Source: Mesostigma viride
Lineage: Eukaryota; Streptophyta; Mesostigmatophyceae; Mesostigmatales; Mesostigmataceae
Assembly: GCA_009746045.1 (NCBI GenBank)
Contig: RPFO01000156.1
Span: forward strand, 259,278 to 323,277
Direction: 5' to 3'
DNA length: 64,000 nucleotides
In this document: positions 7,887 through 56,916 of the stretch, in pieces
Position numbering within the stretch: the stretch's first letter is position 1
Layout of the letters: each line of letters opens with the position of its first letter
Translations under genes and position numbers: made by a program
Notes under the pieces: generated by a model
Databases searched by the model: none
Told to the model about the DNA's origin: nothing
What the model saw: only the letters and a program-made list of their open reading frames with translations

Positions 7887-10800
7887 TTACAATATAAGAG
7901 GTATGGCTTTGCCATTCTCGGGATCCAACACGTCAAAGAAGTATGATGACCGGCTGACATACGCCTCCAACCATCGCATTTCAAAATCCTGCACAGCCCT
8001 GTGCGGTCGGTTTGTGACCGTCAGAGTCCATCTACGCTCTTGCTGGGCAAGGAAATCCTTCAATACCGTGCGGTAAGACTGGGGAAGGAGGCACAAGTCC
8101 ACGTTAAGCGTGACAGCCCCCTGCACAAGTATGACCGACACAACATTCACAAGTAACACAACAAAGGAACACACCAAGGATGAGATTGAGTTCAACAGAC
8201 TATGCCCAGCGGATCAGCCGGAAACAACTGTACAAGAAACCGGTTCATCTGAACTATATCCCGCCACTCGAAGCCAGCCACCAGGAAAGGTCGGTAACAC
8301 GATACGGGCTGGTTATGAACATTTCCAGGTAATCGGTGGCTAATTACATGCTACGGTGTCCAGTCATAGCACATGCAGCTGCTGCCTCCGTCAGTGACAG
8401 TTCGTCGACAGAGGAATCCCAAGGTGCTTCCAAGAAACCTCGCTGTCTAAGGAATCCAATTGTAATGACTGACCTGATATGGCTGAAGCTGGGATAAAAT
8501 AAGAATTATAGCCCTCCTTTAGCCCAGCCCGGCCACCATCCACTCTATCTGCGGGCTAATGCTCTGTGACCTCCCTCTGGGGGCTTGCCAATGGTACCCT
8601 TATGGATCAACCCCCGCTGCCCCGCGAATTATCATCTTGAACACCCCCTTCTCCATCCAACCATGATTCACCCATCAATATTTTCCCACCCACCCACCCA
8701 CCCACCCACCCACCCACCCACCCACCCACCCACCCACCCACCCACCCACCCACCCACCCACCCGCCCGCCCGCCCGCCCGCCCGCCCGCCGCCCGCCCGC
8801 CGCCCGCCGCGCGCCCCGCCCGCCCGCCCGCCCGCCCGCCGCCCGCCCGCCCGCCCGCCCGCCCGCCGCCGCCCGCCCGCCGCCGCCCGCCGCCCGCCCG
8901 CCCGCCCGCCCGCCGCCCGCCCGCCCGCCCGCCCACCCACTCACCCACCCACCCACCCACCCACCCCCACCCACCCACATCCCAGTCCTCATTGTCCACA
9001 TTTTTAAAATGCACATCCACCTGCCCATGCCCGTGCTAGCTATAATTCAAAATGATGCTTCTCCAAGCTCTCGCTCTAAATGAAATATTCAAGTATTTAC
9101 CCACCTCCCAGTTCCCATCCTCCCTGTCACAGGACTAAACATCCACCCACCTCCCAGCTCCCGTCCTAAAACAAAATGTCAAGTTTCACCCACCTCCCAG
9201 CCCCCGTCCTACTAAATAGATTTCAAGTTTCACCCACCTCCCAGCCCCCGTCCTACTAAATAGATTTCAAGTTTCACCCACCTCCCAGTTGCCGTCCTCG
9301 ATAAGCAGCACCAGGTCTGACAGCATCTGCGTCGTGTACATGGGGGGCGGCCTGGGCAGTGGCTTGTGCAGTGCCACCTCGTGCTTCCCGTGGCCGCGGC
9401 CTTGCTTCCGGTGTGTGGGGATAGCGACTTCCGGGGCCGGGGGAGGGTTTGCGAGCGCGACGTCGCAGTCCACGTTCCACCCCACCGAGAGGATGCTGGC
9501 ATTGGCCAGAGGGCGAGGGATGCCAGGAGTAGAAGGAGAGAGGGACAGGTGAGTGACAGGCGATGGGTGTAATTTTATGTCTGTTTATGCGGAAAACCCA
9601 ATACGAGCCCAAACACGACAATGCTAATTCAATGACATGAGGGAGAGAGGTGGCAGGTGGGTGGCAGGCGCCACGAGCGGATTTTCTACGTCAGTGTAGG
9701 CAAGTGCGACATGGAACAAACACAGTCGACGACTGCTAGTCCTCCATGACTGGTGAGGCAGCTGGCGTATAAAAGGCAAAGCCAAGACATTACAACTAAC
9801 AATAACGTGACACAGGGGGCACAATCAGGCTACGCAAGAAAGTACACTGGGAACGGTTACAACTTTGTCCAGAACACAACGGCCGTTGCCGAGTGTGAAA
9901 AGGGCTATTGTCGACACTATTCAAGTTACTACACTTTGCCGTTGTTCTCACACATCGAAATTGTTTCAACGACATCACCAAAAGTTCGGGCCGCTGATGG
10001 CTACGGGTGCCAGCTGTCAAGTAATAGTTTGGCGTACTAGGCTGCACATGATTCCTAGCTAGCCACGTACGCGTGCCAGCTGTCAAGCAAGCACGTACGC
10101 GTGGGGGTATATCCCGCGGCAGGCCTGGATAAAGTCCTCGGCCGCTTGGCGTGATGTGAAAGGACCGTGGGTGCCGCCGGGCCCGACCGCTCTGCGTGGT
10201 TGGACGCGGGGGGTGGGGTTGAGGTGAGAAAACCAAGAAGAACATTGTCGAGAAAACCAAGAAGAACATGCGCACTAGGTGAGTTGACATGCATGCTGGG
10301 TAAAATAATGCTGCGTGTTCATGCTGGGTAACCGTATTTGGGCACCTTATCGCAAGCCAACTAACAAGGGGTTGCTTTGCAAAGCCGTAGGGTAATCGTG
10401 CAAGGCAAGCCAACAGGACTCCAAGCCTTACAGGTCACCCGCAATCCATGTGCACGAATACTAACCCACAAAACCCATGTCACCCTATCCATAACAAGCC
10501 CCAAAACAACCCGTAATCCAAACCACGCGTCGGCGTGCAGGAACAATCACCCCCCAAACCAGTGCGGCATCACGGCCGACATCCCGTTCATACCAACTAA
10601 TGCCATCAAACCATCAAGTGGCCACCCACATGTCGGCGTGCAGGAAGACGGGCGCGGCCAGCAGCTTGAACTCGCGCTGGAGCGCCAGATGGCGCAGAGT
10701 GGGCTGCAGGGTCGCCATGTGGCGGTAGCGCAGCTTGATGGCCTTGGGGCCCGCTTGCACCTGGCAGCCGGCACACGGGGCAGCGAAGAGGACCGCGATG

Positions 10801-14680: not shown

Positions 14681-14920
14681 GGCAACTAAGCTCTGCGACA
14701 CGATAGCTAGAGGTGTGTTGCAGGGGCATAGAGTTTTGAATTGAAATACCTCCTTAATGCTTTAAATGCAGGACTCCGCGTAATGGCAGGTTCGACGAAA
14801 TCGTGGGGAAATTGAACGAGATGCAAGCCCTGCTGAAACCGAGACGGGCTTGGGCATTTGCTTGCGCATACTTCGTCACAGCCTCCTGCGGTCTTCTTTA
14901 AGCCGGCGTTTCGACAGGCA
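14681..14920. promoter_or_regulatory. Short divergent intergenic region
   Basis: About 240 bp between the proposed starts of the FAM151-like gene (minus) and the coiled-coil gene (plus). No TATA box stands out. It would have to carry both promoters if both start codons are right; either gene could have further upstream non-coding exons. Confidence 0.4.
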
Positions 14921-17900
14921 ATGGCGCATTCAGGCTACCAGATCCGCGCACTGCACCGTGATTATCAGACGGCGTATGTAGTCTGACATACGAGATAGCA
15001 GCGTAAGATGGGGCATTACATGCAGGCGACAGAGGCTTCTGCCAGCCTTGCAGAGGCTGTGGCGTCAAGGGAGAAGGCACTATTTTTGCTACAAGATGAG
15101 CAAAGGAAACGGGAGCAGAGCAACGATATGCTCGAAGCCGTGTCTGCTTTTTACAAATGGCGATTGTACAATGTGCGTGGCTCATTTAGAAAGCAGCTTG
15201 CTGGCATTCTTTTGAAGATCGAGGAGGAGGGAGCTCGAGCGGAGGAAGTGAAGCTTAAGGCTCGGGCATTGGAAGAAAAAAATGGCCGGCTTGAGGCGGA
15301 GCTTCACAACTGCCAAGAAGAACTCCAAGTCGCCACTCTGGAGGCGGCAGAGGCTAGGCGAGAGAGCGAGTCCGCGACGGCCCAGCTGCGAGGAGTCGAG
15401 GCCATTTTGCTAGAAGCCGAGAGCAAAACCTTGCAAGTCATGTCTGACAAGGACGCGCTAGCGTCAGAGCTGGAGAATCTGACCGCATCGTTTACCCGTA
15501 GCCAGGTACTCGCGGAAACTGACAAGGCGGTACTGACCGAGAAAGTGGAGGACTTGCAGAGGCAGAGGGTGGAGGGCATGGCCGAGCTGAAACGCCTTCT
15601 GACCCAGGTACAGGCGCTGCTCTGGTGACGGATGCCTGCTTGGAATTGAATAGGGTTTCGGGAATTACCGTCGAGCAGACCCACAATGCCTGCAGCAACT
15701 TGCACTGTTGTGAATTGCCAGGAAATGGCTTCGTGTCAAGCTTCGTTTGGGAAGCTGGGCTGCTAAGTAAGAATTACACCTTTATGTACGCTGAGCTGTG
15801 CATGGCGTCGGCACACATAGTTGCCTTCTGTAGTAATTCGGTATCCGCAGTTTTACCGTAAATTAATCGGGTAGTCGCTTTGGCACCTTCGTTGCTCACC
15901 AGCTAGTCGCCTGACAGTAAACACCTTATATCTCACAGATAGAGGGATTGTATCTGTTCCTAAACACCTGCATTTCTGACCTTGGCGAATTACGCTCCAC
16001 AGCCAGGCTTCGCTACGACAAGAATTGAAAATCTGAGTCCTCAAAAACCGCCACCACTACCACCACCACCACCACCACCACCACCACCACCACCACCACA
16101 CCACCACCACCACCACCACCACCACCACCACCACCACCACCACCACCACCACCACCACCACCACCACCACCACCACCACCACCACCACCACCACCACCGC
16201 CGCCGCCGCCGCCGCCACCACCACCACCACCACCACCACCACCACCATCACCACCACCACCACTACCCCCCCCGCCCCCTCCTCCTCCTCCTCCTCCTCC
16301 TCCTCCTCCTCTTCTTCTTCTTCTTCTTCTTCTTCTTCTTCTTCTTCTTCTTCTTCTTCTTCTTCTTCTTCTTCTTCTTCTTCTTCTTCTTCTTCTTCTT
16401 CTTCTTCTTCTTCTTCTTCTTCTTCTTCTTCTTCTTCTTCTTCTTCTTCTTCTTCTTCTGTGTCGTTCCAAAACCAGTCTTCTCATTCTTGCCCATTCTT
16501 GGGTAAGACCTCGTCTCTCGGCTTTCATGGGCCCCCATCATGTGCCCCCCACTAGGCTTTGGCCGACAACAGGGTAGGTGCCAGGGTTGAGAGCTCCGAC
16601 GTGATTGGATTTTGCATGTTCGTTCCCTCATATTCCTATTCGAGTCATCCGTCCATTCGTGTCATCCTTGGGGTGTCACCCCACCCATCTCGCCCCCTTG
16701 TGCCGCGTTTGCTGTGCTTGCCAATCTCTGTGATGTCGCCTCACCCATCTTGCCTATTTGCCGCCCATCTCTCTCCCGCCGGGCACTTTTTTACTATATG
16801 TTTTCCTGGATGCCCCACCCATCTTGCCTGTTTCAACGCACCTCTCGCCCCCCACCTGCCTTTTTTTTCCTATTATGTGTCCGATCCCAGGACAATACCT
16901 GGATGCCCCACCCATCTTGTTCTCTCAGCGTCCCCCTCGCCCCCCACCTTCCGCCTTTCTATACGTGTCCTGTCTTCCGTGCGACCCTGCCCCTCTTGTC
17001 CCCACCCGCCAGCTGGCAATCAAAGACGAGGCGCACGTGAAGCTGTCCGAAGACTACGACAAGGTCAAGGCCAAGCTGTGCTGCCTCGCAGAGCAGCTGG
17101 CGGCGGCCAAGGCCGAGACTGTGGCGCTGGCGGGCAAGCACCGCGAGGAGAACGAGCGCGTGCTGGCGGACGTGAGGGAGACGCGGAGCAGGTTGCAGGC
17201 CAAGGAGGTGGGTCACACGGGCTTGCAGCGTTGCAAGCCAAGGTGGTTTTGTACAGGCTTCAGGCCAAGGAGGTGGGTTGATACAGGCCAAGGAGGTGGG
17301 TTGATACAGGCCAAGGAGGTGGGTTGATACAGGCCAAGTAGGTGGGTTGATACAGGCCAAGGAGGTGGGTTGATACAGGCCAATGAGGTGGGTTGATACA
17401 GGCCAAGGAGGTGGGTTGATACAGGCCAAGGGGATGGGTTGATGCAGGCCAAGGGGATGGGTTCGTACAGGCCAAGGAGGTGGGTTGATACAGGCCAAGG
17501 AGGTGGGTTGATACAGGCCAAGGAGGTGGGTTGATACAGGCCAAGGAGGTGGGTTGATACAGGCCAAGGAGGTGGGTTGGTACAGGCCAAGGAGGTGGGT
17601 TGATACAGGCCAAGGGGATGGGTTGATACAGGCCAAGGGGATGGGTTGGTACAGGCTTGAAGCCAAGGTGGTTGTACAGGCTACTAGCAAAGGAGTTGGG
17701 TTTGTACGGGCTACAGGTCAACGAGATGCATCTGTACAAGCCAAGGAGGTGTGTTTGTACAGGCTGCAGGCCCAGGGGACGGGTTGATGCGGTCTTAGCA
17801 AAACAACAGATGTGGACTTATGAGGCTTGTCCTCCTGCTTCATCCCGCTTCACCCCACATAAATCAAATAATTAAATTAATTAATCCACACGTAACTGCG

Positions 17901-20900
17901 TCACGTGGGTGCCAGTACAGAGTAAAGGAACCTTCAACCCCTATACACAACGAAAAGGAGGGAGGGCGCCCTAGCTTCTCTCACTGCCAAAAGTGGGCGG
18001 GCCACAGAGGGCTCTATCCACAGCATGGTGCCGGGGCGCAACACCCCATATACGCCCATACTATCCCCCTTCTCTGGGTGTTTTCCTGCCCTATCCTGCT
18101 TGTACTCACCTTATTGCGCCTAATTGTCTCGACTTAGTCATCTCATCTGACCCTTATCCCCCCCATCTGTTACCCTTACCCCCTACCTATTACCCTTACC
18201 TACTCCCTTTACCCACCATTCCTCACCCAGGTGGAGGCGACGGCGCTGGCCACGCGCGCGGCAGCATTAGAGACGGAGCGCGACGCGTTGCGTGCCGACA
18301 AGGCGGAGGGCCGTCACGCGCTGGCCACCGCGCAGGGTGAGGCGCGCGACGCCCGCACTATGCTGGTGGAGGCGCAGCGCCAGCTGGCAGCGGCCAGGGA
18401 CGAGGCGCAGGCGGCCGCGGCCGCGGCGGCCAGGGACATGGCGGTGTGTTTCTGGAATGTATCATGCTTCTCCTGTAGGGGGCGGCTTCCGATCCTCTAG
18501 TCGATTTAGACTTTGATACTAGACACCCAACAGCATAATATGTAGAGGTTGCCTCGCGGGCCACAATTGGGACCAAGCGGTTTAGATTTGTGGTCACGAG
18601 TGCCAACTGGTCGTCACAAGGGCCAGCAGCCCGAGTTGGGACAAGCGCTCCGAGGTTGCGCTTGTCCCACTTAGGGGACAAGCCGCAACAGTATGCTGTC
18701 TGTGCCAGTGATCGTGCATGGCCGACTTCTGTGGCAGCCAGGCCTGCTCTGTGTGTCTTCCCAACTATGCCATCGGGCACATCTGCTGTGGCGTGGCGCA
18801 CTGTGCCGTGCGCCAAGTGCCAGAAAAAAGGTCTTCAGGATGTGTGACAAGGCGCGACCAACGTTTGCATGCGACGTGCCCCCCACTGCCGCTTGCATGC
18901 ATGGCTGTGCAAGCCGACAGTCATGCTGTGAAACCCAGATTTCCCCCTTTGGGTTTTGCTTGAGTAATGTTGCCTGGCGCTGTGCCTTATGAATATATAT
19001 GGCACTATCGATATGCGGCATGTACCGTGTGAGGTGTGGCAGGTGATCAAGGATGATCATGGCGTAGCAACAGCCAACCTTAACGTATGTGGTTTGGCCA
19101 TCCATCACCAAGCTCTGGCTGTATATGTGGCCTGTCTTGTGGCGTGTGTCGTGCGCCAGGCATTATAGGACGGCTATGTCATAATGTGTGACACGGCATG
19201 AGCATGTTTCTCATGATGTGTGGTGAAGTACGTAGTGTGCCGTGCGCCAGTCCCTCAAGGACGACATCGCATAGCGCTGCCCAATCTCTCTCAATGTTTG
19301 TGAATAACGTGCCGTGCCTGTCCGTGCCACGTGACGTCCGCCAGGCGCTAAAGGACGACATGGCGCGCATGCGGGAGGCCAGCGCGGATGAGCAGGCGCG
19401 CGTGCTCATGGCGCGGGTGGATGAGCTGATGGGACAGTTGGCGCAGGAGCGCGAGGCGAGGGGCGCGGTGGAGAGGGACCTGCAGGCCCACGTGAGTTGT
19501 GACACAGCTGTGTTCTTGCTCGGCGTTCTGGTGGGTGTTTTCTTGTGGATGGTCTTGATGAATGATTCTTGTTAGATGATTCTTATTAGATGTTTCTTGT
19601 TCTATGATTCTTGTAAGACGATTCTTGTTCGGCCGGTGAGCCCACTGTGCCATCAGCATCGCCACATGTGTGTGCTAGCCATAGCTCTGTGCCACTTCAG
19701 ACGTAGCTGCCAATTTTTGTGGACGGGAGGCCAGCGCGGCTCCGGGGTGCTGGAAAACCAATTTTACAGTTATCACCCTGTGTATCGTTTTTTTTCCCCT
19801 TTCTATGGCAGTATCGTTTCATGGACATTATATATCGCTATACTATTGTTATACGCGTGTAGGGATATCATAATTGTTATATATGAAGCTACCACGTTTT
19901 TTAGAGCGGAGCTGAGCGTGGTTCTACCATGCTGCACCAGAAGAGCGGAAGGTTTGTGTGGGTTGCCTCGCGCAGCGGAAGCATACTGTACTAGACCCGC
20001 TGGTCACTATAATGGTCACTACAACGCTTGGGCGGTTGCCTTGCGCAGCGGAAGCAGGGCTAACGTGTTAAGGTGTAGTGTAATGATGAGCTGCATTGTC
20101 AGCGAGCGCCATTCTTGTCATTGCTGCACGTACATTGCCACTATGTTCTTCATACCTGAGCTGGAAGCAGATGGGCAGGTTGGCACGGTTGCGCTGTGCG
20201 TAATGCATCGAAGCAAGTTTGAGAGTGCTTGTCACACAGTGCTAAATTGCTGTATGCGAAGCGATACAGCAAGTTAAGGGGTGGCCACATGGGCACTTAG
20301 AAAATTTCTTGTCTCACCATCCTTATAACCAATGAACCATGCGAGACATTAATTCCCCTAGGATAGAATTGTCGGAGCATTAGCACACTATGCATCTGCA
20401 TCAGCATCTGCTGCGACGTTCCTCTCCCATGCATCTGCTGCTTTCTTTGTACTTTCCAGCTGTGTGCTCACTTGCTTGTCATGGCTGTGGTCGTGTGTTG
20501 GTTACTGGCATATCGTGACCAGATCGCATCCGCCCAGCACAACGACGCCCGCGTCAACATATCCCTGGCGTCGCGTGGGCGCAGGCCGACCCGCCAGGTG
20601 CATCTCGTGCCTGTATTCACTGCCACCTATGCACTACTCAATAAAGTGTGGGCGTACTCCAGGAGCGCTGCTAGTAGACCCACTCGCGTGTATCTAGATC
20701 TGATACAGCAGGTAGCCCGTGTGCTCTTAGTCGGGGGATTCCGAAGACTTTGGCTGTTACCCCGGTTGGATGCACGCCAGCTGTCCTCCTTTTGCTTGCG
20801 GATGCTGCCGTTCTGAATGAGGACGGGCTCATGCATCATTCTACAGAAGGATTACTTGAACGACCCCGTCATCACCTTCTGACCTGGTACCCCGTTTCTT

Positions 20901-23900
20901 ATACCCCATACCTTATGCCTCATATCTTGTACCCCATATATAATACCCCATATCTTGTTCCCCATATCTTGGACCCCATATCTTATATCGCATAGCTTGG
21001 AACCCATGTCGTATACCCCATTTGCTATACCCCATATCTTATATCCCATATCTTGGACCCCATATCTTGTACCCCATCCCTTAAATGCCCCATATCTTGG
21101 ACCCCATATATAATACCCCATATCTTGGACCCCATATCTTGGACCCCATATGTTGGACCCAATATCTTGGACCCCATATGTTATACCCCAGAGACGTACG
21201 GCAGAGGATGACGAAGTGGCGGACGACGAAGACGCTGCGCGCGGCGGCGCTGGTTTGGACGCGGAGCAAGCGCGGTGGGCGCTGCTGGAGCGCTCTTTCT
21301 TGCGCTGGCGCCTGGGCGCCACCCTGGAGCGGTGGAGGGAGCCCGTGATCGCGGCGCGGGGGGCGACAGCCGCGGTGGAGATGTGGAGGCAAGGGGGCGA
21401 GGACGAGCGGGGTGACGTCGCGAGCATGCGGCAGCAAGCAGCGGTAAGGAATAACTGAATAGGGAGTAAGTGAATAGGAGTAAGGAGACATGCACAAGCT
21501 TTTCCATCTAATGTACAATGTTATTTTTCCCTCCTTTACCTTTCTCTTCCTTTTCCAGGTTCCATTTTTTGGTCAATGACCCATGACGGACTACATTACT
21601 CGAAAAACTTGGCTGACTAGTTACTCCTTGTGACACAAAGGACCGCCAACGACAGCAAAAGGACCGTCCTCAGGACTGCTTGCCCATCTGCCGACGTGTG
21701 TTGACACAAAAGACAGCCCTCAGGGAATGTTTGCCCATCTACCCACGTGGCTTTGCACCAAGGACAGTCCTCAGGAATGCTTGCCCATCTGCCCACGTGG
21801 TTTAACACCAAGGATAGTCCTCAGGAATGCTTGCCCATCTACCCACGTGCTTTGACACCAAGGACAGTCCTCAGGCATGCTTGCCCATCTGCCCACGTGG
21901 TTTAACACCAAGGACAGTCCTCAGGCATGCTTGCCCATCTACCCACGTGGTTTAACACCAAGGACAGTCCTCAGGCATGCTTGCCCATCTGCCCACTGGC
22001 CTTGGTCATCACCGGTGAATTTCACCTGTGATCATCACCTTTTCTGTTTGCCTTCCCTTTTCACACAGCCATGGTCTTGTATCCGCCCTGTCTCGCCACA
22101 AAGATGAGGATCCCCGGCAGCACATTGCTGGATTCATTCTGTCCTACAAGAGCTCCCTCGATTTGGCCGCATGAATGCCACCCATATATGCTATCTAAGG
22201 CACCGTAGCTAGCTGCCCTGGCAACATCTGGGTTCATGGTCTGCCTTATTGCCCCCCTTGTGTCCCTCTTTTCTTTTTGCATTTTTGCACAGAAATCGCA
22301 GCAGAAGATCGACGTGCTGCTCGCCTGGATGCCTGCACCTGTCACTGCGCCCCGCGCCGCACCCACCGCACTAGAGGCCTGCCTTGCCTCGGTGGGCGGC
22401 GCCGCCACCTTCCCCCATGCGGCCTCCTCGGGAAAGCGCCTTCTGCTGGCGCTCACGTGGCTGCGCTGGTGGCGGGGTCGTGCTGCGGGGGTGTGGGCGA
22501 GGGAGCGGTGGGCCATCTTGGTGGGCCGAGCGGTGCAGCAGGTGTGTGTGATGGATTTGTTGATGTAGTAAGGCCACCCATAGCATTCCTAAGTGGGACG
22601 AGCGGTGCAGCAGGTGTGTGAGATGGCTTTGATGTAGTGACTAGTGAGGCATTCCTCGTGGGCCTTGCTGCGCAGCAGGTGGCTGACAGGAATTCCACGT
22701 ACTGAAGCCACTCATATTATATATTGGTGTTAGCATCAGCTTGGGTATGGGGAGATATCCAGTTGTCAATGTCCGGGCTGGTAGACGTGGATGTGGGTGC
22801 TGGGTGATGGGTTTACTGGCAAATCACGGTCTGTTGAAGGAGGGGCTGTGATGTGCGAATGTTTATTTTGTGGCGCTGAGGCAGCTTCATGGATGCCACA
22901 GGTCTTCAGTCACCAGCTACTCATGCGTGCGTGATAAAAAGCTCATTATTCTTGTTGGCTGCTACATCCATTGCCACCTGATCACAACAGCAGCCCTGTT
23001 CCTACAACTGCAGTTACCATTCTACCGTATGTTGTAATCAGAGAGAAATTACGTTCATGGACACTTTTAAAGATATGTCGGGTGCCACGTCAATGTGTTT
23101 GATCTCTTACACCCTGATTACTGCTGGCAAAGAAAGTTAAACCTGTCTACCGGAGAGAGGGTGAATTGCTCTTTTAGAAAATGTGCCTCCCCCAACAGAG
23201 ATGGCCCCCCACACAGAGCAGGCCTAGGGCTGGAGAAAGGGCGCAGGGGTAACTGCAGCCATAGACCCATCTACCTGAAAACCTACATGTTATAATGTCA
23301 TACTGGTGTTTTAAGGTCCATACCCCCTTAGTTCTGCGCATGAGAAGGACGCGGGCATGTGGGTCTGCTTCCCGCCCAAGACCCGTGTACCTGGAAAAAC
23401 TTGCATTCTGTCCTTATTTTTTTCCTTACATTCACACGTCCTCGTTTCCCCGCAGGAGAAGGACGCGGGCACGTGGGGCCGCTTCCAGCCGTCGTACCTG
23501 ATCGGCGCGGCGCACGCGCGCGACCGGGCGGCCAAGGCCCGCGCGTTCATGGCCAGGCCCGCACGGCCGGTATCGGACGCCAGGGTGAAGGCTGTGGCGT
23601 TTGGCGCGTGGCGTTCGGCGGCACGGGTCAAGAATGCGTGGGATGCCGTGCAGGCGGCCGCGCGGCACGCCGACCGCATCAGTGCGGCGCTCCCCTGGTG
23701 GTGGGTGCCAAATATACATCATGCATGGCTGCATGTGTGGACCCATGGTGCATCCCTGTATGCCCGTGTCTGCATGCACACGCGTATGCGCTTGGTTGGG
23801 TGGCTGGGTGGGTGGATGGATGGGTGGGTGGGTGGGTGGGCGGGCGGGCGGGCGGGCGGGCGGGCGGGCGGGCGGGCGGCGGGCGGGCGGGCGGGCGGGC

Positions 23901-26870
23901 GGGCGGCCGCGCAGGCGGTTGGCCAGTGTGGGTGGAGTTGTGGGTGTGCATGGTGAGTGTTCCTGCTTGCTTTTGCCCGTGTCAGTGTGTATGCATGGCT
24001 GTGCTTGTCTGTGTGTGTTTGCACACACAGGGTGGTTGTCGGGGGGGGATCCTGGGCAGTTGCGTCTGAGCGATGAATCCTTGCTCGCCTGCACTCTGGG
24101 TGGTGGGAGGTAGCTAACGGTATACAACTATAGACTCTGGGTGGAGCACATGGCCTTTGGTGGCTTGCTGCCCTGACGAGCGTTGCGTTGCATCGGCCAC
24201 TCAATAGCCCATGATGCCTTGTTGTTTCCCGCCATGTTTGATGTCAACGGTGGTACGGCCTTGCACGGCAGAACAGAAATCGTGCTCGGTGGGAGCACAA
24301 GCGACCAACATCTCACCACCAGGGCGCCACCAGATCAAAGTCGATATTCCCCCGGCCGTTTGCTCGACCCCTAGTGCCCCACCACTTGTTGTTCCTCCCT
24401 TGTGATGACTGATGAGCTTCTCGTGGCGCCTCCCTTGTGCGTACGGCTTCGCAAGGCAGCCTCCTATTTAGGAAGGGATGGGGCTTGCGACAGTGTTGCT
24501 TTATCCCGTAGTGCCCCACCCCTTGGTGCTAATGTATCTGACCTTATGCTCCCCCCCCATGCGCCCCGCCCCTTTCGCCCCGCCCCTTTCGCCCCGCCCC
24601 TTGTGCCACGCCCTTGGCTCTGTTGCCCTGTTGCCCTGCCCCTTGGTCTGTGCAGGATCAACCACGTGGAGCAGCGGCGGCGCTTTGAGCGCTGCTTCCT
24701 GCGCTGGCGCCTGTACACGCTCGGCTGCCGCTACCGCCACCCGCCCCACGCCCACCGCCGCTCCTACTCCTGGGACAGGGGGCGCGAGCTGGGCCGCGAG
24801 CGGGGCGTTAGCAAGCGCTCCCGGTCCCACTCGCTGTCGCGGCATCGCGCAGCATGGGACGAGGCCACATCGAGCATGACCAGCAGCGACACCAGCGGCA
24901 GCTCGGACAGTGGGGGTTACTCCCCAAGGGGGGGCAGCGCACGCAGGGACCCTCGGGGTCGCCCCGTGGCCAGGTCCAAATACCACCGAGTCGCCAAGTC
25001 GGGCCAGAGCACACCGGGCAAGGACGCATCGGCTTCGGCGGCGCTGGAGCGTAGCCTCAAGGACCTGCAGGTGAAGTGGTGTGCATACTAACCTGCGGAG
25101 GAGTGGTGTGTGTAGTAAGCTGCAGGTGAGGTGCCGTGTGGAATAGCTTGCAGTCGTGTGGCGTGGGCGGTAACCTGCAGTAAAGTGATGCGCATGTAGT
25201 TCTTTTTTCATCCTTTTTTTTTGTATCCATGGGCCCTCCCATATCGTTTCCTCGCTCAATGTTTCGGACTCTGGACCGTACTTGCTAGCTTACAGTGTCA
25301 TGTTACCTCCAAAACCCCTTGGGAAATATTGCAGGGCTTGCAGCAGCTCCCTGCGGTCACAAACCCGTGTGGCTTCTTACATGCATGTGCTCGTCTGAGG
25401 AGAGCCATCTGTGTGTTTCGCCAGCTCAAAAGGTTGTTGCTTGCAAGGATTTTCATGGAACTTTCTATGGCCTGTTGCAGATGAGCTGTTGCAGGGCCGT
25501 GCACTATCTGGCATGTTATAGTACATGCCTGGGATTCTAGATTTGGTTAGGGTTGCCCTTTGCTTAAAAGGGGTAGGATTTCTTTTTTCAAGGCCTGATG
25601 GCTGAACCCCTGCCTATGCACCACACGGTTGCCCCTTGCCACCCTGCAGGCATCCATGGCGGGAGAACTCCACGCACTGCGTAAGCAGCTCACCGAGACG
25701 CAGCAAAAGGCGCCGCGGCTAAAGAAAGCCGTCAAGAAGCCCAAGAAGAAGAAGAAGATGGTCAAGAAAAGCATGAGCCAGCGGCCCCGCTCGGCGCCAC
25801 CCGGTTTCGCCCCCCAGCTGGAGCACACGGTGGCCCAGGGGGTAGACCTGCTCCACAGGATCCAGCAGGACATACGATCGTTAGACAGGGCGCCCGGTGT
25901 CACCTACATCATGCCACCAGGAGGCAGGGAAGACGCAGCCCCAGCATCCACCGTGCCGGCCAGCAATGGCACTGCGGCAGCCCCAGCAAATGGGGGTCAA
26001 CCAGCCCAGTCGGACTTTTTACGTGACAGGCAGCAGCAGTCAGCGGCTACCCCGGATGCGCCAGCTTCCAACCATCATGACGCGCCCGCTAGTCTGCAGC
26101 CGGGCAGCAAAGGAAGGGCTTTGAGCGCCCAGCCTCGCGCGAGAGCCGTGTCAGGTGGCCCTGCGACGCTCGGCGCAACAGGCAGGGACATGGGAAGAGC
26201 TTCTGCATCCTCCCAGGTGAGCCACCTGCTCCCCAAGCCGGGGGACCCTGAGGCCATCGCCGCGGTGGCCCGCGCGGCGTCAAGGGGTATTTATATCCGC
26301 CCATCTTCGTCGGGCCAGGGTGGCCGTGCTGTGCTGCCACTGCCCCAGCGGCGTGCACCCCCCCCTTCAGGGGGGCACACTTTGAGCCCTATCCTGGAGG
26401 AACGATCCCAGGCAAGAGATGATTCGATCGAACGCAGCGGCAACATGGCCATCCCTGATGCCCGTCTGGGCGATCCTGGCTTGCCGGTCTGGCAGAAGAA
26501 GGCAGGGGGTGCAGAGCGGGAGGGAACGGGGGCAAATGCCAGCGGCTATGCAGATGGTGCCGAAGACAGGCCGCGACCTGGTTTGAGCGTGAGAGCGGAG
26601 CCGCCACTAGAGAGCGGGTACTCTCCAGGCCAAGGAGAGCCTGCGGTATGGCTGCCTGCACAACGCATCCCCAGGGTTGCCCTGCTGCCCAGGTCTAGGG
26701 CTGCTGGTGGCAAGCAGTGCGGCTGTGGCAGCGTTCATGCGGAAGGTGCGGTTCGTACGTGCATCGGGGCGCATTTTGCGAGCAGGCTGGCGGACGCCCT
26801 CACGCAGAGCAGTGATCCTTTTAGGCCGCAGAGAGTGGTTAACAACAGATCTGGGTACAGGTCTGGATGA
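14921..26870 (+). CDS. Coiled-coil protein with Sfi1-like F-x-x-W-R segments
   Basis: Core exons: 15008-15607, 17013-17207, 18231-18443, 19345-19491, 20523-20597, 21192-21443, 22293-22541, 23456-23700, 24656-25070, 25650-26870 (3612 nt, 1203 aa; phase closes, mostly phase 0). The first four encode long Glu/Ala/Leu coiled coil. Later exons carry segments like FYKWRLYN (exon 1), LLERSFLRWRLGATLERW (exon 6), LLLALTWLRWWRG (exon 7), VAFGAWRSAAR (exon 8) and FERCFLRWRLYT (exon 9), reminiscent of the centrin-binding repeat of Sfi1-type centrosome proteins. The last exon begins with a lysine-rich run (KKPKKKKKMVKK) and is otherwise low-complexity. An alternative start at 14921 (MAHSGYQIRAL) would need a 48 nt intron ending at 15025. 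A centrosomal or basal-body role is inference; the gene structure is well supported, the 25-codon exon at 20523 and the end of the last exon less so. Confidence 0.78.
16050..16460. repeat. Compound triplet tract (CCA)n-(CCG)n-(CCT)n-(CTT)n
   Basis: About 410 bp of triplet repeats in the first large intron of the coiled-coil gene: CCA/CAC (16050-16264), a short CCG block inside it, CCT (16275-16311), then about 49 uninterrupted CTT units (16312-16459). The apparent poly-His, poly-Phe and poly-Lys frames are artefacts. Confidence 0.98.
17208..17660 (+). repeat. 23-bp minisatellite copied from an exon end plus donor
   Basis: The exon ends CAGGCCAAGGAG and the intron begins gtgggt. From 17266 the unit CAGGCCAAGGAGGTGGGTTGATA repeats about 17 times with few changes, followed to 17790 by longer degenerate units (GTACAGGCTxCAGGCCAAGGAG...). 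Every unit therefore contains a copy of the exon end and a potential 5' splice site. Confidence 0.95.
17866..17950 (-). mobile_element. LINE 3' tail fragment
   Basis: Minus-strand tail with a hairpin close to CACGTGACGCAGTTACGTG and an AATTAATTAAT run, preceded by CGTTGTGTATAGGGG as in the copy at 11155-11245. Lies in an intron of the coiled-coil gene. Confidence 0.65.
19030..19344 (+). repeat. ~100-bp ladder of decayed 3' splice site + exon-start copies
   Basis: The real acceptor/exon start (19335-19366: GTCCGCCAG then GCGCTAAAGGACGACATGGC) has earlier look-alikes at 19242 (GTGCGCCAGTCCCTCAAGGACGACATCGC), 19149 (GTGCGCCAGGCATTATAGGACGGC) and 19040 (GGCAGGTGATCAAGGATGATCATGGC). Spacing is about 95-110 bp and similarity falls with distance. 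Confidence 0.8.
20880..21190. repeat. Minisatellite of CCCCATATCTTGGA-type units
   Basis: About 20 units of roughly 10-21 bp (CCCCATATCTTGGAC / CCCCATATCTTATAC) fill the end of an intron right up to the acceptor of the exon at 21192. Confidence 0.95.
21640..22005. repeat. ~58-bp minisatellite
   Basis: Six or seven units containing CACCAAGGACAGTCCTCAGG, CATGCTTGCCCATCTG and CCCACGTGGTTTAA, in an intron of the coiled-coil gene. No clear match to the flanking exon ends. Confidence 0.95.
22515..22700 (+). repeat. Exon-end/donor duplication, three copies
   Basis: The exon end GTGGGCCGAGCGGTGCAGCAG with donor gtgtgtg (22521-22548) is followed by GTGGGACGAGCGGTGCAGCAG+gtgtgtgag (near 22593) and a more decayed GTGGGCCTTGCTGCGCAGCAG+gtggctg (near 22659), spaced about 70 bp. 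Confidence 0.9.
23230..23455 (+). repeat. Decayed copies of an acceptor/exon start
   Basis: Upstream of the exon starting at 23456 (GAGAAGGACGCGGGCACGTGG) the intron carries GAGAAGGACGCGGGCATGTGG at 23342 and a weaker GAGAAAGGGCGCAGGGG near 23234, about 110 bp apart. The segment after each copy (ACCTGGAAAAACTTGCATT / ACCTGAAAACCTACATGTT) is also shared. Confidence 0.85.
23796..23912. repeat. (TGGG)n/(CGGG)n tract
   Basis: Pure G-run tetranucleotide repeats starting ~100 bp into an intron of the coiled-coil gene; potential G-quadruplex on the transcribed RNA. Confidence 0.97.
25061..25200 (+). repeat. Exon-end/donor duplications (CTGCAG+gtgaagtg)
   Basis: The exon ends ACCTGCAG before gtgaagtggtgtgcatactaac. 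The motif ACCTGCGGAGGAGTGGTGTG, GCTGCAGGTGAGGTGCCGTG, GCTTGCAGTCGTGTGGCGTG and ACCTGCAGTAAAGTGATGCG follows at ~30-37 bp intervals. Confidence 0.85.
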
Positions 26871-27995: not shown

Positions 27996-30900
27996 TCAGT
28001 CCCTCCGCGGTGCAATGGGCACCTCCTTGGTGTACGGCTCCACCGCAGGCACATCCTCAGGGGTCAGCGCCCGCAGCTCGCGCTCGAGCTTGTCCGCCTC
28101 GATCTCCTCAAACGACTTGGCGGTCTCCTCAGCGTGCTCCTCCGCAAGCTCTGCGTACTTCTCCGCGCTCGTCGCGATGAACTTCTTCTCTGCATCCGTC
28201 ACGTCGCGCTTGAACTTGGCGGGGTTGCCCAGCCACACCTGGCCGAAAGAAATGGGTGGGTTGAAGCCAGGGGACGTGGTTGTTGGTAGCATGTTAAGAC
28301 AGACACAGGTGCAAACATGTGTCAGTATGCGGAAGGAAAGCGTAGGCCAAAGGGATGGGTTAAACCTGCTTTTTTTTTTTTTTTGGCGTGCAAGGAATAT
28401 AAATGAGATAACAAGGTACATGTGTGCAGATGAATATGTACGTGAATATATGGGGGCACACATAGCCGGTGGGTACATCGATTGGCACGCAACCCAAGCA
28501 AGCACAGTGGTGGAGACAAGAAGAGGGGTTGCCCAGCCACACCTGGCAGGTAGAGGGTGAGGCTATGGCCAAGTCCATGGGGGCATGCACACGAACTAGA
28601 ATCGCGAGGCATTGGGAATGCTAGCTACAAACGCAGGTAGGCGAGCATGATTCCCAGTGGAAGGGGCAACCGGGGTGAACAACAGTTACCAACCAACCTA
28701 AACCAGGGTAGGGTAGGCATCCAACACCAACCAGCGAGCACAATCATATGCGTGGGTTGGCACTGTTGTCCCTCCCATCACGCTCATGCCGGCGTCCTAC
28801 AGACAGCTGCGCTGCGATGAAAGCATGCGTAGAAGCGCTCAAGTCATCCGGCTGCATATCTTAAATAGAAACCGGAACACAAGCCCCCAAGCCTAACAAA
28901 ACCCAAACCCTCACGACCCTACTCTACCAGCAGTGTACCCTACTCTACTAGTGTGTTCTACCCTACTCCAGCCCATCTTGGTCTAGTTTGCCACCCAGGC
29001 TCCCCACCCTTGTGTTTGCTAGCCCCATTTTAATCCGCACCTAAGGCGTAAGTAAATGCGCTCATATCATGCCTGGCACACATAGCAACCGCCATCTTCC
29101 CACCAGGCATCCACGAGAACAGATATTAGCATGATACTATATACTCACGTTACTATACTATTTACTTACGTGACTGTACTATTTACTTATGTTACTATAC
29201 TCTATACTAACGTTACTATACTATTTACTTATGTGACATACTACATACTTACGTTACTATACTATGTACACACTATTTACTTACGTGAGTACACTATATA
29301 TACTAATGATAGACAGGAAAACTGCCTGTGCCACCCTTGTGCAACATGGTACCCATAGCTTCCTCTGCCCTTTACAACGGGCATCATTATACTTAACCAA
29401 ACACCTATTTAACAAACAAAAGGCAATCTTTATCATTATGATCATAATCACTTCAGATTCAAATTGCAAACACGTGCCTTTGGGGGGAAGTTAGGGCACG
29501 TACTGAACTACGTCATATACTAGGTAGAATACTGTACTGTACTACGGCATGTACTAGGTAGTAGTACATGCCTTATGCACTGTACTTGTATTCGCCATGT
29601 GCGATGGCTGCACATACCTGCCCTGCCCCTATAAGACCTTGGTCCCCACTACTGCGCGCACACAGTTTACCAGTCATTGTATCAAACAACAGGTTGAACA
29701 ACACAGCAAGGTGCCACCCAGGACGCACCTGCCCCTGGGGGATCTTGGTCCCCGCCAGCACGACGGAGCCTGCCCCCACGATGGACCCTGACGCGACGTG
29801 GGCCCCGTCCATGATGGTCGCGCCCATGCCCACAAAGCAGTTGTCCTCGAGGGTACACGCGTGGAGCACCGCGTTGTGGCCTGGGGGGAAGAGAGGGAGG
29901 GGTGAAAGGGGGGAGAAATGGGGGGGTGAGAGGTAAGAAAAGATGTGAGATGCACCTTGTGTATGCGAGGGCCAAAGGTGGACGTACAAGGGTGAATGGT
30001 AAGGCCGAAAAGAGAGGGCAAAAGAAAAGGGCGAGAGGAAAGGGAAACAGGATAGGGCGAAAGGGAAGGGCAAAAGGTGGAAGTACAAGGTAAGGCAAAA
30101 GGTAAGGGGTAGATGCCACAGGGGGGGGCAACCGTTTGAACAACTTATTGCCTAGTTGGGAAGGCAAGTCAAGGAACAGGTAGGGGCACATTCCGTTACG
30201 ATGGTTGGACAGCATATTCACAGACACCGGGGTGTGACAGCGGGCCGAATTCGGTATATTGGTTGGTCGATTTATTGGTATATCGGTATTAACCACTATA
30301 TACTGGCTGATGAAATCCCCATGGGCATGCAAACATGTGTGCAGCACATGCGCCACATTTTAACCATATCTACCAAGCAAGGAAAAGGAAACGAGGGCAA
30401 GTGGGGGGAAACTATGAAATATTGGTACATTACTAGGATTCAAACACGGGACCTCTATCACGGCTTCGCGACTATAGCCCAAGGGGTCTCCTGATCCAAA
30501 GGCATTTCAAACTATAGAACATTAGTGTAAAAGGCACTTTACAGAGAGCTGTGCTAGTGTGTCTGAAATTCCGCAGTGTATGCCAGTGGACCTAATCTAA
30601 CTGTGCTTGCCCCAGGGGTCGAACACGAGCAATATACAAATAATGGGTTCACCCCAAGATGATGGCACTGCCCAGAAACGCCCAGCCTGGCCTGTCCACT
30701 AAGTACATTTCCCATGAACCCAGCTGGCTTTCTAACCTTACTAGCTCTACTGTACCCTAAAGTCATGTTCATGGTCCACACTGGACGGAAAGTACCATCC
30801 AAGCCAAAACATTTTGCGCTCATTCCGGAGTCCCCATTGGCATAGGCTTTGACACTCATGCGTGCTGCCGATGCGGCTGGGTCACCATACACACCGCTAC

Positions 30901-35599: not shown

Positions 35600-35785
35600 C
35601 ACATTTCCATCTCCATTCATATTCATCGTCCTAAAAGACTCGAAAACGCGGACAAGATAACGGCAGGCTAGCTCGAGCTACCATTAATTAATTAATTAGA
35701 CTCGTGCTCCCGTTGGGGAGTCGAGCTACCATGGTCCGGATTCTCTCGATTTCTGGCCTGCGCTGGTTGTCTCCTTGATATTGCA
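35600..35785. repeat. Dispersed SINE-like repeat B with a 37-bp tail insertion
   Basis: Shares CACATTTCCATCTCCATTCAT, GACTCGAAAACGCGGA and GATTTCTGGCCTGCGCTGGT with 44383-44510; the last part also with 57763-57815. Relative to the copy at 44383, it contains an extra (TTAA)n + CTCGTGCTCCCGTTGGGGAG block flanked by an 11 bp duplication, TCGAGCTACCA. Confidence 0.85.
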
Positions 35786-37542: not shown

Positions 37543-37573
<31 letters not shown>

Positions 37574-40500
37574 GCATCCCTACTGGCACCTGACACGCTC
37601 CCTTCCTCCCCACGGTGTCCCTGAGGCCCCGAGTCATGTCTGGGACGGGCGTGGCCGCCGACGCCCGCGCCCCTTCCATGCCCCCTGGCCCAACCCTGCC
37701 TGCCATCTGGCGCAGCGTGGGCGGGCATGGCGGGCGCTTGTTGCTGGTCACTGGTCGGCGCTCGGCTGGGCGTTGGGGCCACCGCATGTGACCCACTACT
37801 AGTTACGGCCACCGCACGTGACCCACTATCGGTCGCGGCCACAGCATGTGGCCCGTGATTCATCGCGGCATGTCGCCGCCCTCCTTCAAGTGCGTGGGGG
37901 TGGTGGGACGATGAGGGCCCAGGGGGATGGCTGGGCTGTGCGGCATCATGGGGGGTGGATGGTGCTGCCGGGTGAGGGTTTGCATGTCCCCTTCCACCTC
38001 CTCGTTGGGAGCCCCTGGCTGACCTGGCGCCGCTGGACTCCACAAATGGACCAGCATCCACCTGCCCCCCCCTGGGCCCTTATTCACAAACTGGCCCCTT
38101 TGCCCCTCATTCCTTTTTTGCCCCCCTTGGCCTTCTTTTCCCCCTTGCCTTCCTGGCCCTCCTTGCCCCTGGCCCCCTTGCTTTCTTTGCCCCCCTTGCC
38201 CTCCTTGCCTTTGGTGGCCTTGCTGCCTTTGCTGCCCTCCTTGCCCTCCTCCCCCCCCTGTTGTTCCCCTCTCCCACCAGCCCCCCCCCCCCCTGCCTCC
38301 CCCTCGGGCTCCACCACAAACACGGACGATGCACGCACGACACGGATGAGTGCGCCCCCCTCGGCCACCCCCCCACTGCTACTGTCCTGCACGATGATCG
38401 CGTCTCTCGCCAGCTGGCGCGCGTACAGCAACCGCATGGCCGCCTGCTGCGCCCTCAGGGCGTCCCTGGAGAAGAGGAGCGACCCGGCGGGCAGGTCCGA
38501 TATGCAGGCGCCGGAATAAGGGGAAGGCGATTGGGTGGAGGAGGAACCCTCTGGGACACGTAGGGAAGACGCGGCGTCGCGGCGATCAGCATAACGAGGG
38601 GCATTGCCAGCAGACTGAGGAGAGGGTGCTTTTGACGACGTATCTGCATTCCCGCTTCCTTCACTGCCGGCGGTATCGGAACCATTTTGAGAACGCTCGT
38701 CCATTGCGACATCGCCCAGGAATGCATCCTGCTTGACATGGTCGCGACGCGACGCCGAAATGCCTTCAACCCCGCTGGCCATTCCGCTAAGTCCGCTAAT
38801 TCCGCGAAGTCCATCCACCTGACCCTCCTGAGAAACTCCCTCCACCCCCTCCTTTGACCTCTCTCCCTCCAGCCCCTCCTGTCCCGTCTCTGAGTCGGCA
38901 ACCTTGGAGAAAAGAACCTTGTCGTCCCCGGTCCCTACATCCCTACTCGGTCCCTGTATCTGTGGCTGGTCTCGCGGCCGGCCACCACCTGTCCCTCCCT
39001 GTGCCTCCTCGCATGACCAGGAGCTGCAGGGTGCCCCAGGTCGCCCCAGCCACCCGCGCGCGTGCGCCAGCTCCTCAGGCTCCACCTCCGCACGGCACAC
39101 GGGGCAGAGCACGGGGAACTCCCTGTCAGGCCAGGGGTAGGCCGAGAGGTCCCTGGGAAGCTGGCACGGGTTAATGTCATCCACATGCACGCCTGCGGAG
39201 GTGATGCGTTCGATTGCCTCGGTTCGCAGCGTGGCCACGAGTGCACGCTGCTGGTCCGCCGCCATGCGCAGCAGCTGCTGGTGGTGGCTGATGGGGTTGG
39301 CGTGGAGGGATGGTGTTAGAGTGGGGGGGGGGGTGGCAGAGCATGCACGTGGGTTAGTGAAGGGGTGGCATGCCAGGTAGCACTTCTTGCTAGGTAAATG
39401 GCTTGCAAGGTACATGGCTAGAACGGTAAATGGCTGGCAAGGCAAATGGCTTGATAGTTAAGCTATTTGCAATAAGCATTTTACGGAATAGAGAAGTTCT
39501 GCATGAATGGCTTGCAAGGTAAATGGCTTGATAGGTAAGCTATTTGCAATGCGATCCCAGACCAGAAAACGCAGGACCCAAGCGCAGGAAGGCCAGCAAA
39601 CACAGTAAGCAGCGGCACGGCATTGCTGACATAAGCGTGAGTGGGTTTGGCAAGTGACAACCAATTGTTTAGTTACCCATTATGTAGGTTGCATCAACGT
39701 ACTGTGCTATCGACCACACATTATTTAGTTGCCCATTCTGTAGGTTGCATCAACGTACTGTGCTATCGACCACACATTATTTAGTTGCCCATTATGTAGG
39801 TTGCATCAACGTACTGTGCTATCGACCACACATTATTTAGTTGCCCATTATGTAGGTTGTAACACCGTACTGTGGAAGGCGTCGCCCTGCGAAGGGTACA
39901 CCCAGTACGGGATTCGCTGTCCTTGCCCTAGTACAGATCTGTCTAGCGATAAGTGCAGAGTTCCTTGAAAAAATAGCTCCAGGGTGTAACATCAACACCC
40001 TCAAGGGTGTGTGATCAGGGGCACCCGAGTAACAGGCCAGAGACTGCCCATTTGCTGCATATGTCGATAGCAAGACGGCACGGTCTGAACTACACGGATG
40101 CCATACCACCGACTCCCTAAGAGTGGTTACTAGCGGCTGCACCGTGCCAGCTCACGCACCTCTCCCGCGCCCGCTGCTGCTGCCAACACCACCACTGCGC
40201 AAAGCAGGGGTCGGCGTGTGCGCAGTGGAAACAGGCCGGCAGCTTGACTAGGTTGATGGGGGCAGCACACTCGGTGTTCGTTGCCACCCCCGCGGTGCCT
40301 TGGACATCAACAGTGGCATGGTCGCTGCCTTGCGAACCAGCGACGGAGGGCGCTAGGGGGAACAGGCAGAAGGGGCAGTCTCCCTCGGGCGCGTTCATGC
40401 TGGTCAGCTCATCGTGTGCGCGCTGGGCCAGGGGCAGCAGGAACTGCTGCCCGCCGGCACTCGCTGCAAACTCCTGCAGCGTGGCCAGCAGCCGCGACTG

Positions 40501-41369
40501 GCGCGCGTCACCCAGTCCGCGGGCGTGCAGGATGCGCACGTGCAGCGCCTGGGCAGGTGCACGGGGAGGAACAGGGAGGGTGGGAGAGGGGGTTGAATGT
40601 GAAAAGGCGACAAAGGGTGGGGAAGGGTGGGGAAAGGGGTGGGGAAAGGGGTGGGGAGAGGGTGGGAAAAAAGAGTGCGAAACAAGGGAGTCAGGGAATC
40701 TGGTTATTGGTAGAGTTGGTTACCAGTAGAGGTGATTATCAGTAGAGCAGGGGTTCTGGTTAACGGCCGAGTTTCAGAAAAAAAGAAGGTAGCTGTTGTC
40801 AAGAGATGCAAGAGAAAATTATTGGTTCACCCTGGATTCACCAGCGGAAGAGCACTGCCAGATATGCAGATCGCGTCCTTCGCAAATTGGAAAAAAAAGC
40901 TACTACGCGTACTAGGCTTCGCGAAAGCCACCCCCTTGGATAAGGGGTCGCTTTCCCAAGTTCTAGTGTGTCCCAGGCTTATCGATCGCATGTTGTGTCC
41001 AACGACGGGCGTGACATTGACAAGAAATGATTTCTTACATCTTCAGGGTACGCGGGGCCGATCGTGATTTCGATGGCCATCTTCACAAACTGCTGGGTGG
41101 CGTCGTCCGCGGCGTGAGGCTCCAGCTGCAAAATTGCGCGCAAGGGCGCGTGATGAACCTGCACATGCCAGGAGGGCAACGCGTTTATATCGGATGCCTG
41201 TTATGTCTCTCCTGATGACCAAACGTTGCCACCGATGATTAAAAGGGCGTCACTTGCATTGAATCCAGCGCGGGACTGTTGCGCTTACCTCGCATTTATC
41301 AGGCCAAATAGCTTGCAGTGCCTGCAACTCGTCAGATACATCGTCATCAAGCGCATTTTGTGCATCCAT
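36703..41369 (-). CDS. RNF25: RNF25-like RWD-RING E3 ubiquitin ligase with long disordered tail
   Basis: Minus-strand exons: 41369-41289, 41125-41039, 40548-40160, 39287-38339, 38061-36703 (2865 nt, 954 aa; phase closes). Exons 1-3 form an RWD domain: SDELQALQAIWPDK, MAIEITIGPAYPED and LHVRILHARGLGDARQ. The RING-H2 is split over exons 3 and 4: CPFCLFPL, a ~30-residue loop, CFHCAHADPC, then FPVLCPVCRAEVEPEEL. RWD followed by RING with this loop is the RNF25/AO7 layout; that ligase acts with UBE2D/E-type E2 enzymes and on stalled ribosomes in animals. From ~residue 260 onward the protein is Gly/Ser/Ala/Arg-rich and apparently disordered, far longer than in animals (about 460 aa total). The exon 4/5 junction (donor gtgcgtgc at 38338, acceptor at 38062) is my best fit; the G-rich stretch between could be coding or intron. 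Confidence 0.82.
39676..39862. repeat. ~58-bp minisatellite
   Basis: Three and a half near-identical units of CCCATTATGTAGGTTGCATC + AACGTACTGTGCTATCGACC + ACACATTATTTAGTTG in an intron of the RNF25-like gene. Confidence 0.96.

Positions 41370-42346: not shown

Positions 42347-56916
<14,570 letters not shown>

What the first reader, a model, noticed from the sequence alone, without database searches (positions are those of the whole stretch)
9060..56360. Introns repeatedly grow from copies of their own splice boundaries
At a dozen or more introns in four unrelated genes on both strands, the bases straddling an exon edge are duplicated into the adjacent intron. Donor-side cases: 9060-9281, 10000-10098, 17208-17660, 22515-22700, 25061-25200, 47184-47360, 49719-50625, 51508-52630, 54290-54545, 55184-55560, 56235-56360. 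Acceptor-side cases: 19030-19344, 23230-23455, 28524-28553, 45837-45888. Most copies keep a usable GT or AG and several exon codons. Copies nearest the exon are the most intact, and some ladders have a regular ~100-110 bp step. This looks like a recurrent mutational process, e.g. local re-replication or slippage anchored at exon-intron junctions, that lengthens introns and seeds minisatellites.
Basis: partly seen in the sequence, partly recalled or inferred. Interest (0 to 1): 0.85.

Follow-up and report, generated by a model that had tools for sequence, protein, structure and literature searches.

The report
Exon-edge copies inside algal introns
In this genome, probably a green alga's, the ends of exons with their splice sites are often copied into the neighbouring intron; this is a known kind of repeat, seen here far more often than in the few earlier examples, and it helps introns grow.

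Summary
Five gene models give 37 introns (one with a putative 3' end); PDB proteins reproduce all 19 introns of two genes. Donor windows have a same-strand copy in 16 of 37 introns, acceptors in 7 of 35, reverse-strand controls in none.

It extends beyond the window. Genes elsewhere in the genome give donors 41/116 and 19/56, acceptors 23/106 and 9/54, reverse controls 5/332.

A junction-anchored mutation is not established. Exon interiors are almost never copied (19/1282), but random intron windows are duplicated in 1236/4826, more often than acceptors. Near-perfect copies are not commoner at donors than inside introns.

I read it as local duplication across splice junctions, the 'mirages' known from amphioxus: the constrained exon part stays recognisable longest, and copies drift neutrally.

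One result resists that reading: 16 of 17 best-preserved donor copies (5 of 10 acceptors) lack similarity in the adjoining intron sequence, against 29-55% in neutral simulations. A junction-linked copying or conversion step stays open.

The parts
42347..56916 (+). phosphoglucomutase gene, 16 exons, 15 introns
   Evidence: complete ORF; PDB match E 2.5e-198; PDB 6sno spliced alignment reproduces all 15 introns
27996..31618 (-). mitochondrial-type gamma-carbonic anhydrase gene, 5 exons
   Evidence: complete ORF; PDB 6x89_G2 E 1.1e-93; 4/4 introns reproduced
15020..26870 (+). coiled-coil protein gene B (label by eye), 10 exons
   Evidence: complete ORF across 9 GT-AG introns
38084..41369 (-). gene D, RWD/RING-like by eye (not searched), 4 exons, no boundary copies
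   Evidence: complete ORF; donors 0/3, acceptors 0/3
9282..13389 (-). partial gene A, 6 exons; join of exons 5 and 6 out of frame, so that intron is uncertain
9088..9288 (-). donor copies of gene A exon 6 (44-nt array)
   Evidence: TRF; S 49, p 0.001
   Evidence: p 0.001
   Evidence: p 0.001
17225..17784 (+). donor copies of gene B exon 2 (23-nt array, 17 units by TRF)
19029..19270 (+). three acceptor copies of gene B exon 4
22593..22681 (+). two donor copies of gene B exon 7
23337..23376 (+). acceptor copy of gene B exon 8
25091..25195 (+). weak donor copies of gene B exon 9
   Evidence: p 0.002
28525..28547 (-). acceptor copy of carbonic-anhydrase exon 5, 23/23 identical
29622..29647 (-). 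donor copy of carbonic-anhydrase exon 4, GT lost
   Evidence: p 0.002
45838..45879 (+). acceptor copy of PGM exon 6
   Evidence: p 0.001
47298..47358 (+). donor copy of PGM exon 7: bases -54 to +7, core 97% identical, abrupt ends
   Evidence: p 0.001
49718..50588 (+). 46-nt minisatellite that begins at the donor of PGM exon 10; holds one exon base
51615..52662 (+). five donor copies of PGM exon 11 inside a 22-nt/112-nt compound array
54441..54543 (+). two donor copies of PGM exon 13
55287..55557 (+). donor copies of PGM exon 14, step about 105 nt between the two best
56314..56347 (+). donor copy of PGM exon 15

Best explanation
These are 'mirages': short local duplications that span an exon-intron boundary, in a genome whose introns duplicate locally at a high rate. 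A duplication that runs from the exon into the intron leaves the original exon edge in place, so the protein need not change, whereas one inside an exon is removed by selection. The original exon and splice signal are held constant by selection, so only the copy mutates and the exon part stays recognisable longer than an intron-intron copy. That helps explain a donor peak made mostly of diverged copies. The copies then decay neutrally; some grow into minisatellites, others remain as isolated exon-like blocks about 100 nt away. Shown: the copies, their spread over many genes, same-strand orientation, near-absence of exon-interior copies, and codon-position decay compatible with neutrality. Inferred: that splicing ignores the copies, the selection filter, and replication slippage or break repair as the molecular step.
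For: Same strand: reverse controls 0/72 and 5/332. Exon-interior windows 19/1282; intron-interior windows 1236/4826. True tandem repeats show no peak at the donor: 12-15 of 133 introns covered at the junction against 15-19 in the next 110 nt. Near-perfect copies are as frequent inside introns as at the donor (30-nt windows with score >=50 of 60: 4.5-8% throughout; 45-nt windows from score 60 up). Exon-part mismatches by codon position are 9.2, 6.5 and 12.5%, as expected if the copy drifts and the original changes mainly at third positions. Of 33 copies that keep GT, using it would shift the frame in 22 and meet a stop in 10, so they are not useful sites. In amphioxus, RT-PCR and Adh3 data suggested that such copies do not disturb splicing (PMC3087553 passages; PMC3902484 passage). 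Neutral simulations give copies that mostly run flush to the junction and a median distance of 97-149 nt (data 107).
Against: The neutral simulation does not give the sharp donor peak: data 0.36 at -20..+10 over an intron level of 0.14; simulations gave 0.10 over 0.08, 0.28 over 0.20 and 0.46 over 0.35. Nor does it give the loss of similarity just past the junction in well-preserved donor copies: 16 of 17 in the data, 29-55% in nine parameter sets. Isolated blocks with identity >=0.93 cover the donor in 7-9 of 133 introns but an interior site in 0-3. Between scores 24 and 54 donors still exceed intron interiors 1.9- to 3.5-fold. Eleven HSP70-like loci have 0/22 donor and 0/20 acceptor copies, against 41/94 donors in the other loci (p 3e-5), although some have duplicated intron interiors.
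Confidence: 0.6

Rival explanations
1. Junction-anchored copying. A step tied to transcription or splicing, such as template switching at an R-loop or re-copying of the exon edge, places an exon-edge block 50-80 nt into the intron, so the block ends at the splice junction.
For: Under strict scoring 36 of 57 donor copies end between -6 and +15 of the junction, and 21 of 30 acceptor copies reach no more than 14 nt into the intron. One donor copy (clpB, C113) is identical over the last 40 exon bases and loses GT at the second intron base. Of 17 well-preserved donor copies, 16 lack filler similarity.
Against: Under softer scoring only 21 of 57 donor copies end by +15, so part of the sharpness is decay. 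Near-perfect copies show no excess at junctions overall. Six of 10 well-preserved acceptor copies carry homologous filler, as tandem duplication predicts. The ~105-nt spacing also appears among interior repeats.
Confidence: 0.2
2. Tandem duplication followed by gene conversion from exon to copy. Conversion keeps the exon part of old copies fresh and stops where homology stops, at the junction.
For: Explains high exon identity next to unrelated or weakly related filler. Combined filler homology in well-preserved donors is weak but present (3 of 17 singly; Fisher 0.019). Copy-to-copy exon identity 0.77 against filler 0.65 in 27 exon edges, though copies were chosen for exon similarity.
Against: No direct evidence of conversion; 14 of 17 fillers show no detectable homology.
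Confidence: 0.15
3. Functional decoy or recursive splice sites kept by selection.
For: GT kept in 24 of 32 best exon-only copies and 33 of 41.
Against: GT is kept no better than the exon part (mean identity 0.91) and is lost in several of the best-preserved copies. Use of the copy would break the frame or meet a stop in 32 of 33. No RNA data.
Confidence: 0.04
4. Assembly artefact.
For: Some arrays are long and simple.
Against: Most copies in the table are diverged rather than identical, and they occur in many genes on contigs of which many exceed 1 Mb.
Confidence: 0.01

Closest known systems
'Mirages' in amphioxus (Adh3, globin, PGBD5, TnC genes); PMC3087553 and PMC3902484, passages seen. The first report, Nucl Acids Res 2002 (PMC117041), was not held.
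   Same: Minisatellite-like duplications spanning 5' or 3' splice boundaries; copies often carry GT or AG; reported units 10-72 bp (Adh3), 150-160 bp (globin), 60 and 108 bp (PGBD5).
   Different: There, single genes in one animal group; here 76 of 205 tested donors over 36 loci of a probable green alga, with isolated exon-edge blocks whose intron side shows little or no homology. Splicing and length variation were examined there, not here.
Intron gain by tandem duplication of AGGT segments (Rogers 1989; PMC4974935 passages)
   Same: Tandem duplication across or near splice signals.
   Different: Here existing introns acquire copies; no new intron position was shown.
Introners (PMC9860276; search listing only)
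   Same: Intron growth or birth by duplication.
   Different: The sequence between junction and copy is not shared among introns; the 30 best matches shown were all simple C/G-rich sequence.

Membership tests
amphioxus-type mirages | direct repeats that span an exon-intron boundary | tested here: met
amphioxus-type mirages | both 5' and 3' boundaries affected | tested here: met
   donors and acceptors
amphioxus-type mirages | many, not all, copies keep GT or AG | tested here: met
   GT in 24/32 best copies; AG in 10/17 best and 14/23 of all acceptor copies placed within 6 nt of the edge
amphioxus-type mirages | minisatellite-like tandem arrangement of whole units | tested here: inconclusive
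   arrays in part of the cases; isolated blocks without filler homology in others
amphioxus-type mirages | normal mRNA splicing despite the copies | not testable with these tools
   no RNA data; frames suggest the copies are not used
amphioxus-type mirages | length instability between alleles | not testable with these tools
   one assembly only
introners | same element inserted at many introns | tested here: not met
   fillers compared all against all: listed matches are simple sequence only
intron gain by AGGT tandem duplication | a new intron position absent in relatives | not tested
   no relatives held for this genome

The most novel reading that the evidence does not exclude
A process tied to splice junctions writes exon-edge blocks (15-60 exon bases, ending at the splice site) into the neighbouring intron some 50-80 nt away, on both sides of exons. 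Introns of this genome would then grow partly from a record of their own exon edges rather than by ordinary slippage.
Probability: 0.2. Interest if true: 0.82.

Novelty: new variant of a known kind. Interest (0 to 1): 0.5.

Why it matters
If a third of donors carry such copies, this genome is a natural laboratory for how introns lengthen, how splicing tolerates near-perfect decoy sites, and how new introns or exons could start. The earlier reports that I saw concern single genes in amphioxus. Eight literature searches listed no such report in an alga as far as titles and opening lines of abstracts show; most subscription papers are not held. Strain resequencing here could test directly whether duplication is drawn to splice junctions.

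Tried and rejected
Chance similarity: rejected by shuffles and reverse controls and, in the window, by swapped edges. Shared inserted element: fillers compared all against all; the 30 best matches shown were simple sequence. A short motif seen by eye in fillers (GGTCACTA) occurs 4 times on the + and once on the - strand of the window. Functional exon copies: codon-position pattern and frames argue against. A junction-specific ~105-nt spacing looked strong at first, but a later comparison with interior repeats was not significant. A purely neutral tandem model was simulated in three runs and fails on the peak and on filler loss. The first extension of copies was spoiled by self-alignment and redone. 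A first statistics script failed on output and was rerun; a BLAST step failed for missing files.

Rows dropped: acceptors of gene A introns 5 and 6; introns with an exon under 24 nt (131 to 125; none of 60); donor tests with splice score under 6 and acceptor tests under 4; targets under 150 nt; introns under 330 nt, under 300 nt, the second part of 95, 97, 99 and 105, under 200 nt; low-complexity windows and in the 'complex' counts. Searches cover the window and the first genome set only. Loci were chosen for having several exon-like matches; the bacterial-looking contig C2011 and many weaker or single matches (for example most FtsH-like ones) were not fetched.

Full report
Gene models. The window carries nuclear genes with GT-AG introns. 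I built exons by eye and checked that they splice to complete frames: phosphoglucomutase (42347-56916, +, 16 exons), gamma-carbonic anhydrase (31618-27996, -, 5 exons) and a coiled-coil gene (15020-26870, +, 10 exons), then an RWD/RING-like gene (41369-38084, -, 4 exons; the label is mine, by eye) and a partial gene at 13389-9282 (-) whose exon 5-6 join is out of frame. That makes 36 introns; a 37th, after the last exon of the partial gene, was given a putative 3' end. PDB searches identified PGM (E 2.5e-198) and a plant-type mitochondrial gamma-carbonic anhydrase (E 1.1e-93). A spliced aligner that I wrote, run with those PDB chains, returned exactly the same 15 and 4 introns. That the organism is a green alga is inference, not a tool result.

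The observation. For each exon edge I took 30 exon and 15 intron bases and scored the best local match in the rest of the intron against 1000 dinucleotide shuffles and against the edges of all other introns. Donors: 16 of 37 at p<=0.01 (0.4 expected); acceptors: 7 of 35; reverse complement: 0 of 37 and 0 of 35. The RWD/RING-like gene has none.

Is it only this window? The whole assembly (G000, 440 Mb, 2243 contigs) can be searched. With E. coli DnaK, GroEL, CarB, FtsH, IleS, GltB, EF-G and the window's PGM I located genes elsewhere, fetched part of the places found and aligned 24 loci (131 introns, 125 kept). Donors 41/116, acceptors 23/106, reverse controls 1/116 and 2/106. A second set, fetched afterwards as a replication (EF-G at C734, IleS at C1413, four ClpB loci, ValS; 60 introns), gave donors 19/56, acceptors 9/54, reverse controls 1/56 and 1/54. 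The phenomenon is therefore widespread. It is uneven: eleven HSP70-like loci gave 0/22 donors and 0/20 acceptors, while IleS at C1690 gave 13/19 and 6/16.

Is it special to junctions? Exon-interior windows: 1/73 and 0/84, 6/401 and 9/459, 1/117 and 2/148. Intron-interior windows: 112/483 and 120/483, 335/1276 and 341/1275, 167/656 and 161/653. Drawing one interior window per intron gives 5.6 expected against 16 observed donors of 33, 17.2 against 41 of 108, and 9.4 against 19 of 54. For acceptors it is 5.9 against 6 of 31, 15.6 against 21 of 99, and 7.7 against 9 of 51. With low-complexity windows removed the acceptor figures are 4.3 against 6 of 29, 11.7 against 21 of 96 (P 0.0006) and 5.2 against 9 of 51 (P 0.05). 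So intron DNA duplicates locally everywhere, donors stand out, and acceptors stand out little. Donors exceed acceptors (76/205 against 38/191, p 0.0002).

The shape of the donor peak (window and first genome set). In 30-nt windows the rate is 1-2% deep in the exon, 38% at -20..+10, and 11-20% from 0..+30 onward. Near-perfect matches (score >=50 of 60) stay at 4.5-8% from the junction into the intron. In 45-nt windows, as the score threshold rises from 24 to 60, the donor-to-interior ratio falls from 3.5 through 1.9 (at 54) to 1.2, and from 66 on it is below 1. Most of the peak is thus older, diverged copies. That is expected in part if the original exon and splice signal are constrained, because then only one side of the pair mutates.

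Where the simple account falls short. A neutral simulation of local duplication, deletion and substitution with a constrained exon gave too small and too broad a peak. It did give copies that mostly run flush to the junction (gap over 6 nt in 5/82, 14/118, 11/125 and 4/78; data 0/30) and median distances of 97-149 nt (data 107). It failed on one point: among donor copies whose last 25 exon bases are at least 88% identical, the 40 intron bases beyond the splice signal have identity at or below 0.66 in 12 of 13 cases and 4 of 4 in the replication, 16 of 17 together; for acceptors it is 4 of 8 and 1 of 2, which the simulations would allow. Simulations of donors gave 13/40, 15/52, 22/59 and 16/42, then 25/46, 12/22, 47/112, 74/165 and 19/40. 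A separate test found homologous filler in 3 of these 17 donors and in 6 of 10 well-preserved acceptors; among less well-preserved copies it was 9 of 25 donors and 1 of 12 acceptors. Repeats fall into tandem arrays, which show no donor peak, and isolated blocks, which do (23-24 of 133 introns at the junction against 5-12 inside; with identity >=0.93, 7-9 against 0-3). Under strict scoring 36 of 57 donor copies end between -6 and +15; under softer scoring 21 of 57. Examples with sharp ends are PGM intron 7, clpB intron 5 at C113, IleS donor intron 5 and IleS acceptor intron 4.

What the copies do. Nothing points to a use. GT is kept in 24 of 32 best exon-only copies, no better than the exon part itself. 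Use of the copy as donor would shift the frame in 22 of 33 and meet a stop in 10. Mismatches are spread over codon positions (35/382, 25/383, 49/393), with a mild excess at third positions (p 0.018). I conclude that copies are tolerated decoys that decay. That splicing ignores them is inferred from the frames and from the amphioxus reports, not measured.

Spacing. The nearest copy lies 95-115 nt from its original in 20 of 57 donors and 11 of 28 acceptors, but interior repeats also favour that range (16 of 68 tiles, some of which may be copy-to-copy distances), so the step is not shown to be special to junctions. For acceptors a lower limit is expected, since the true site needs its branch point and pyrimidine tract between copy and exon; that is inference.

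What is known. Duplicated splice boundaries are called mirages in amphioxus, where both boundaries are affected, units of 10-160 bp are reported, RT-PCR suggested normal splicing, and copies are unstable in length (PMC3087553, passages). [quoted passage not shown] The original 2002 paper was not held. The present case is the same kind of feature at a much higher incidence, with the isolated exon-edge blocks as the part I could not match to a description.

Verdict. Observation confirmed and extended to other genes of the genome.

Noticed in passing
window 3618-4670 and 5053-6100: Two nearly identical direct copies of about 1 kb flank a short segment, next to a coding-like stretch; looks like a long-terminal-repeat element (by eye).
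   Followed up: no
window 1-900 and 60400-62100: Long inverted similarity, including a CTCC/GAGG tract, at both ends of the window; likely members of one repeat family (by eye).
   Followed up: no
window 57960-60030: Decayed LINE-like reverse transcriptase region (by eye; no family search made).
   Followed up: no
window 62908-63635: 184-bp satellite, four copies, 93% matches.
   Followed up: no
G000 contig C2011: Intronless dnaK, groL, clpB, ftsH, fusA and tRNA-synthetase-like genes on one contig: looks like a bacterial contig within the assembly.
   Followed up: no
G000 contigs C602, C530, C980, C1153, C2103, C802: Repeated, often inverted, equal-scoring ORFs matching FtsH and a short EF-type GTPase: probably many copies or misassembled pieces of a plastid genome (interpretation recalled).
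   Followed up: no
L025-L036 except L027: Eleven HSP70-like loci with 0/22 donor and 0/20 acceptor copies, against 41/94 donors in other loci of the same call; reason unknown.
   Followed up: partly
G000:C313:about 10900-18300 (L009, L010): A second, divergent phosphoglucomutase gene with a different intron layout; donor copies in 3/9 or 2/9 with 600-nt targets.
   Followed up: partly
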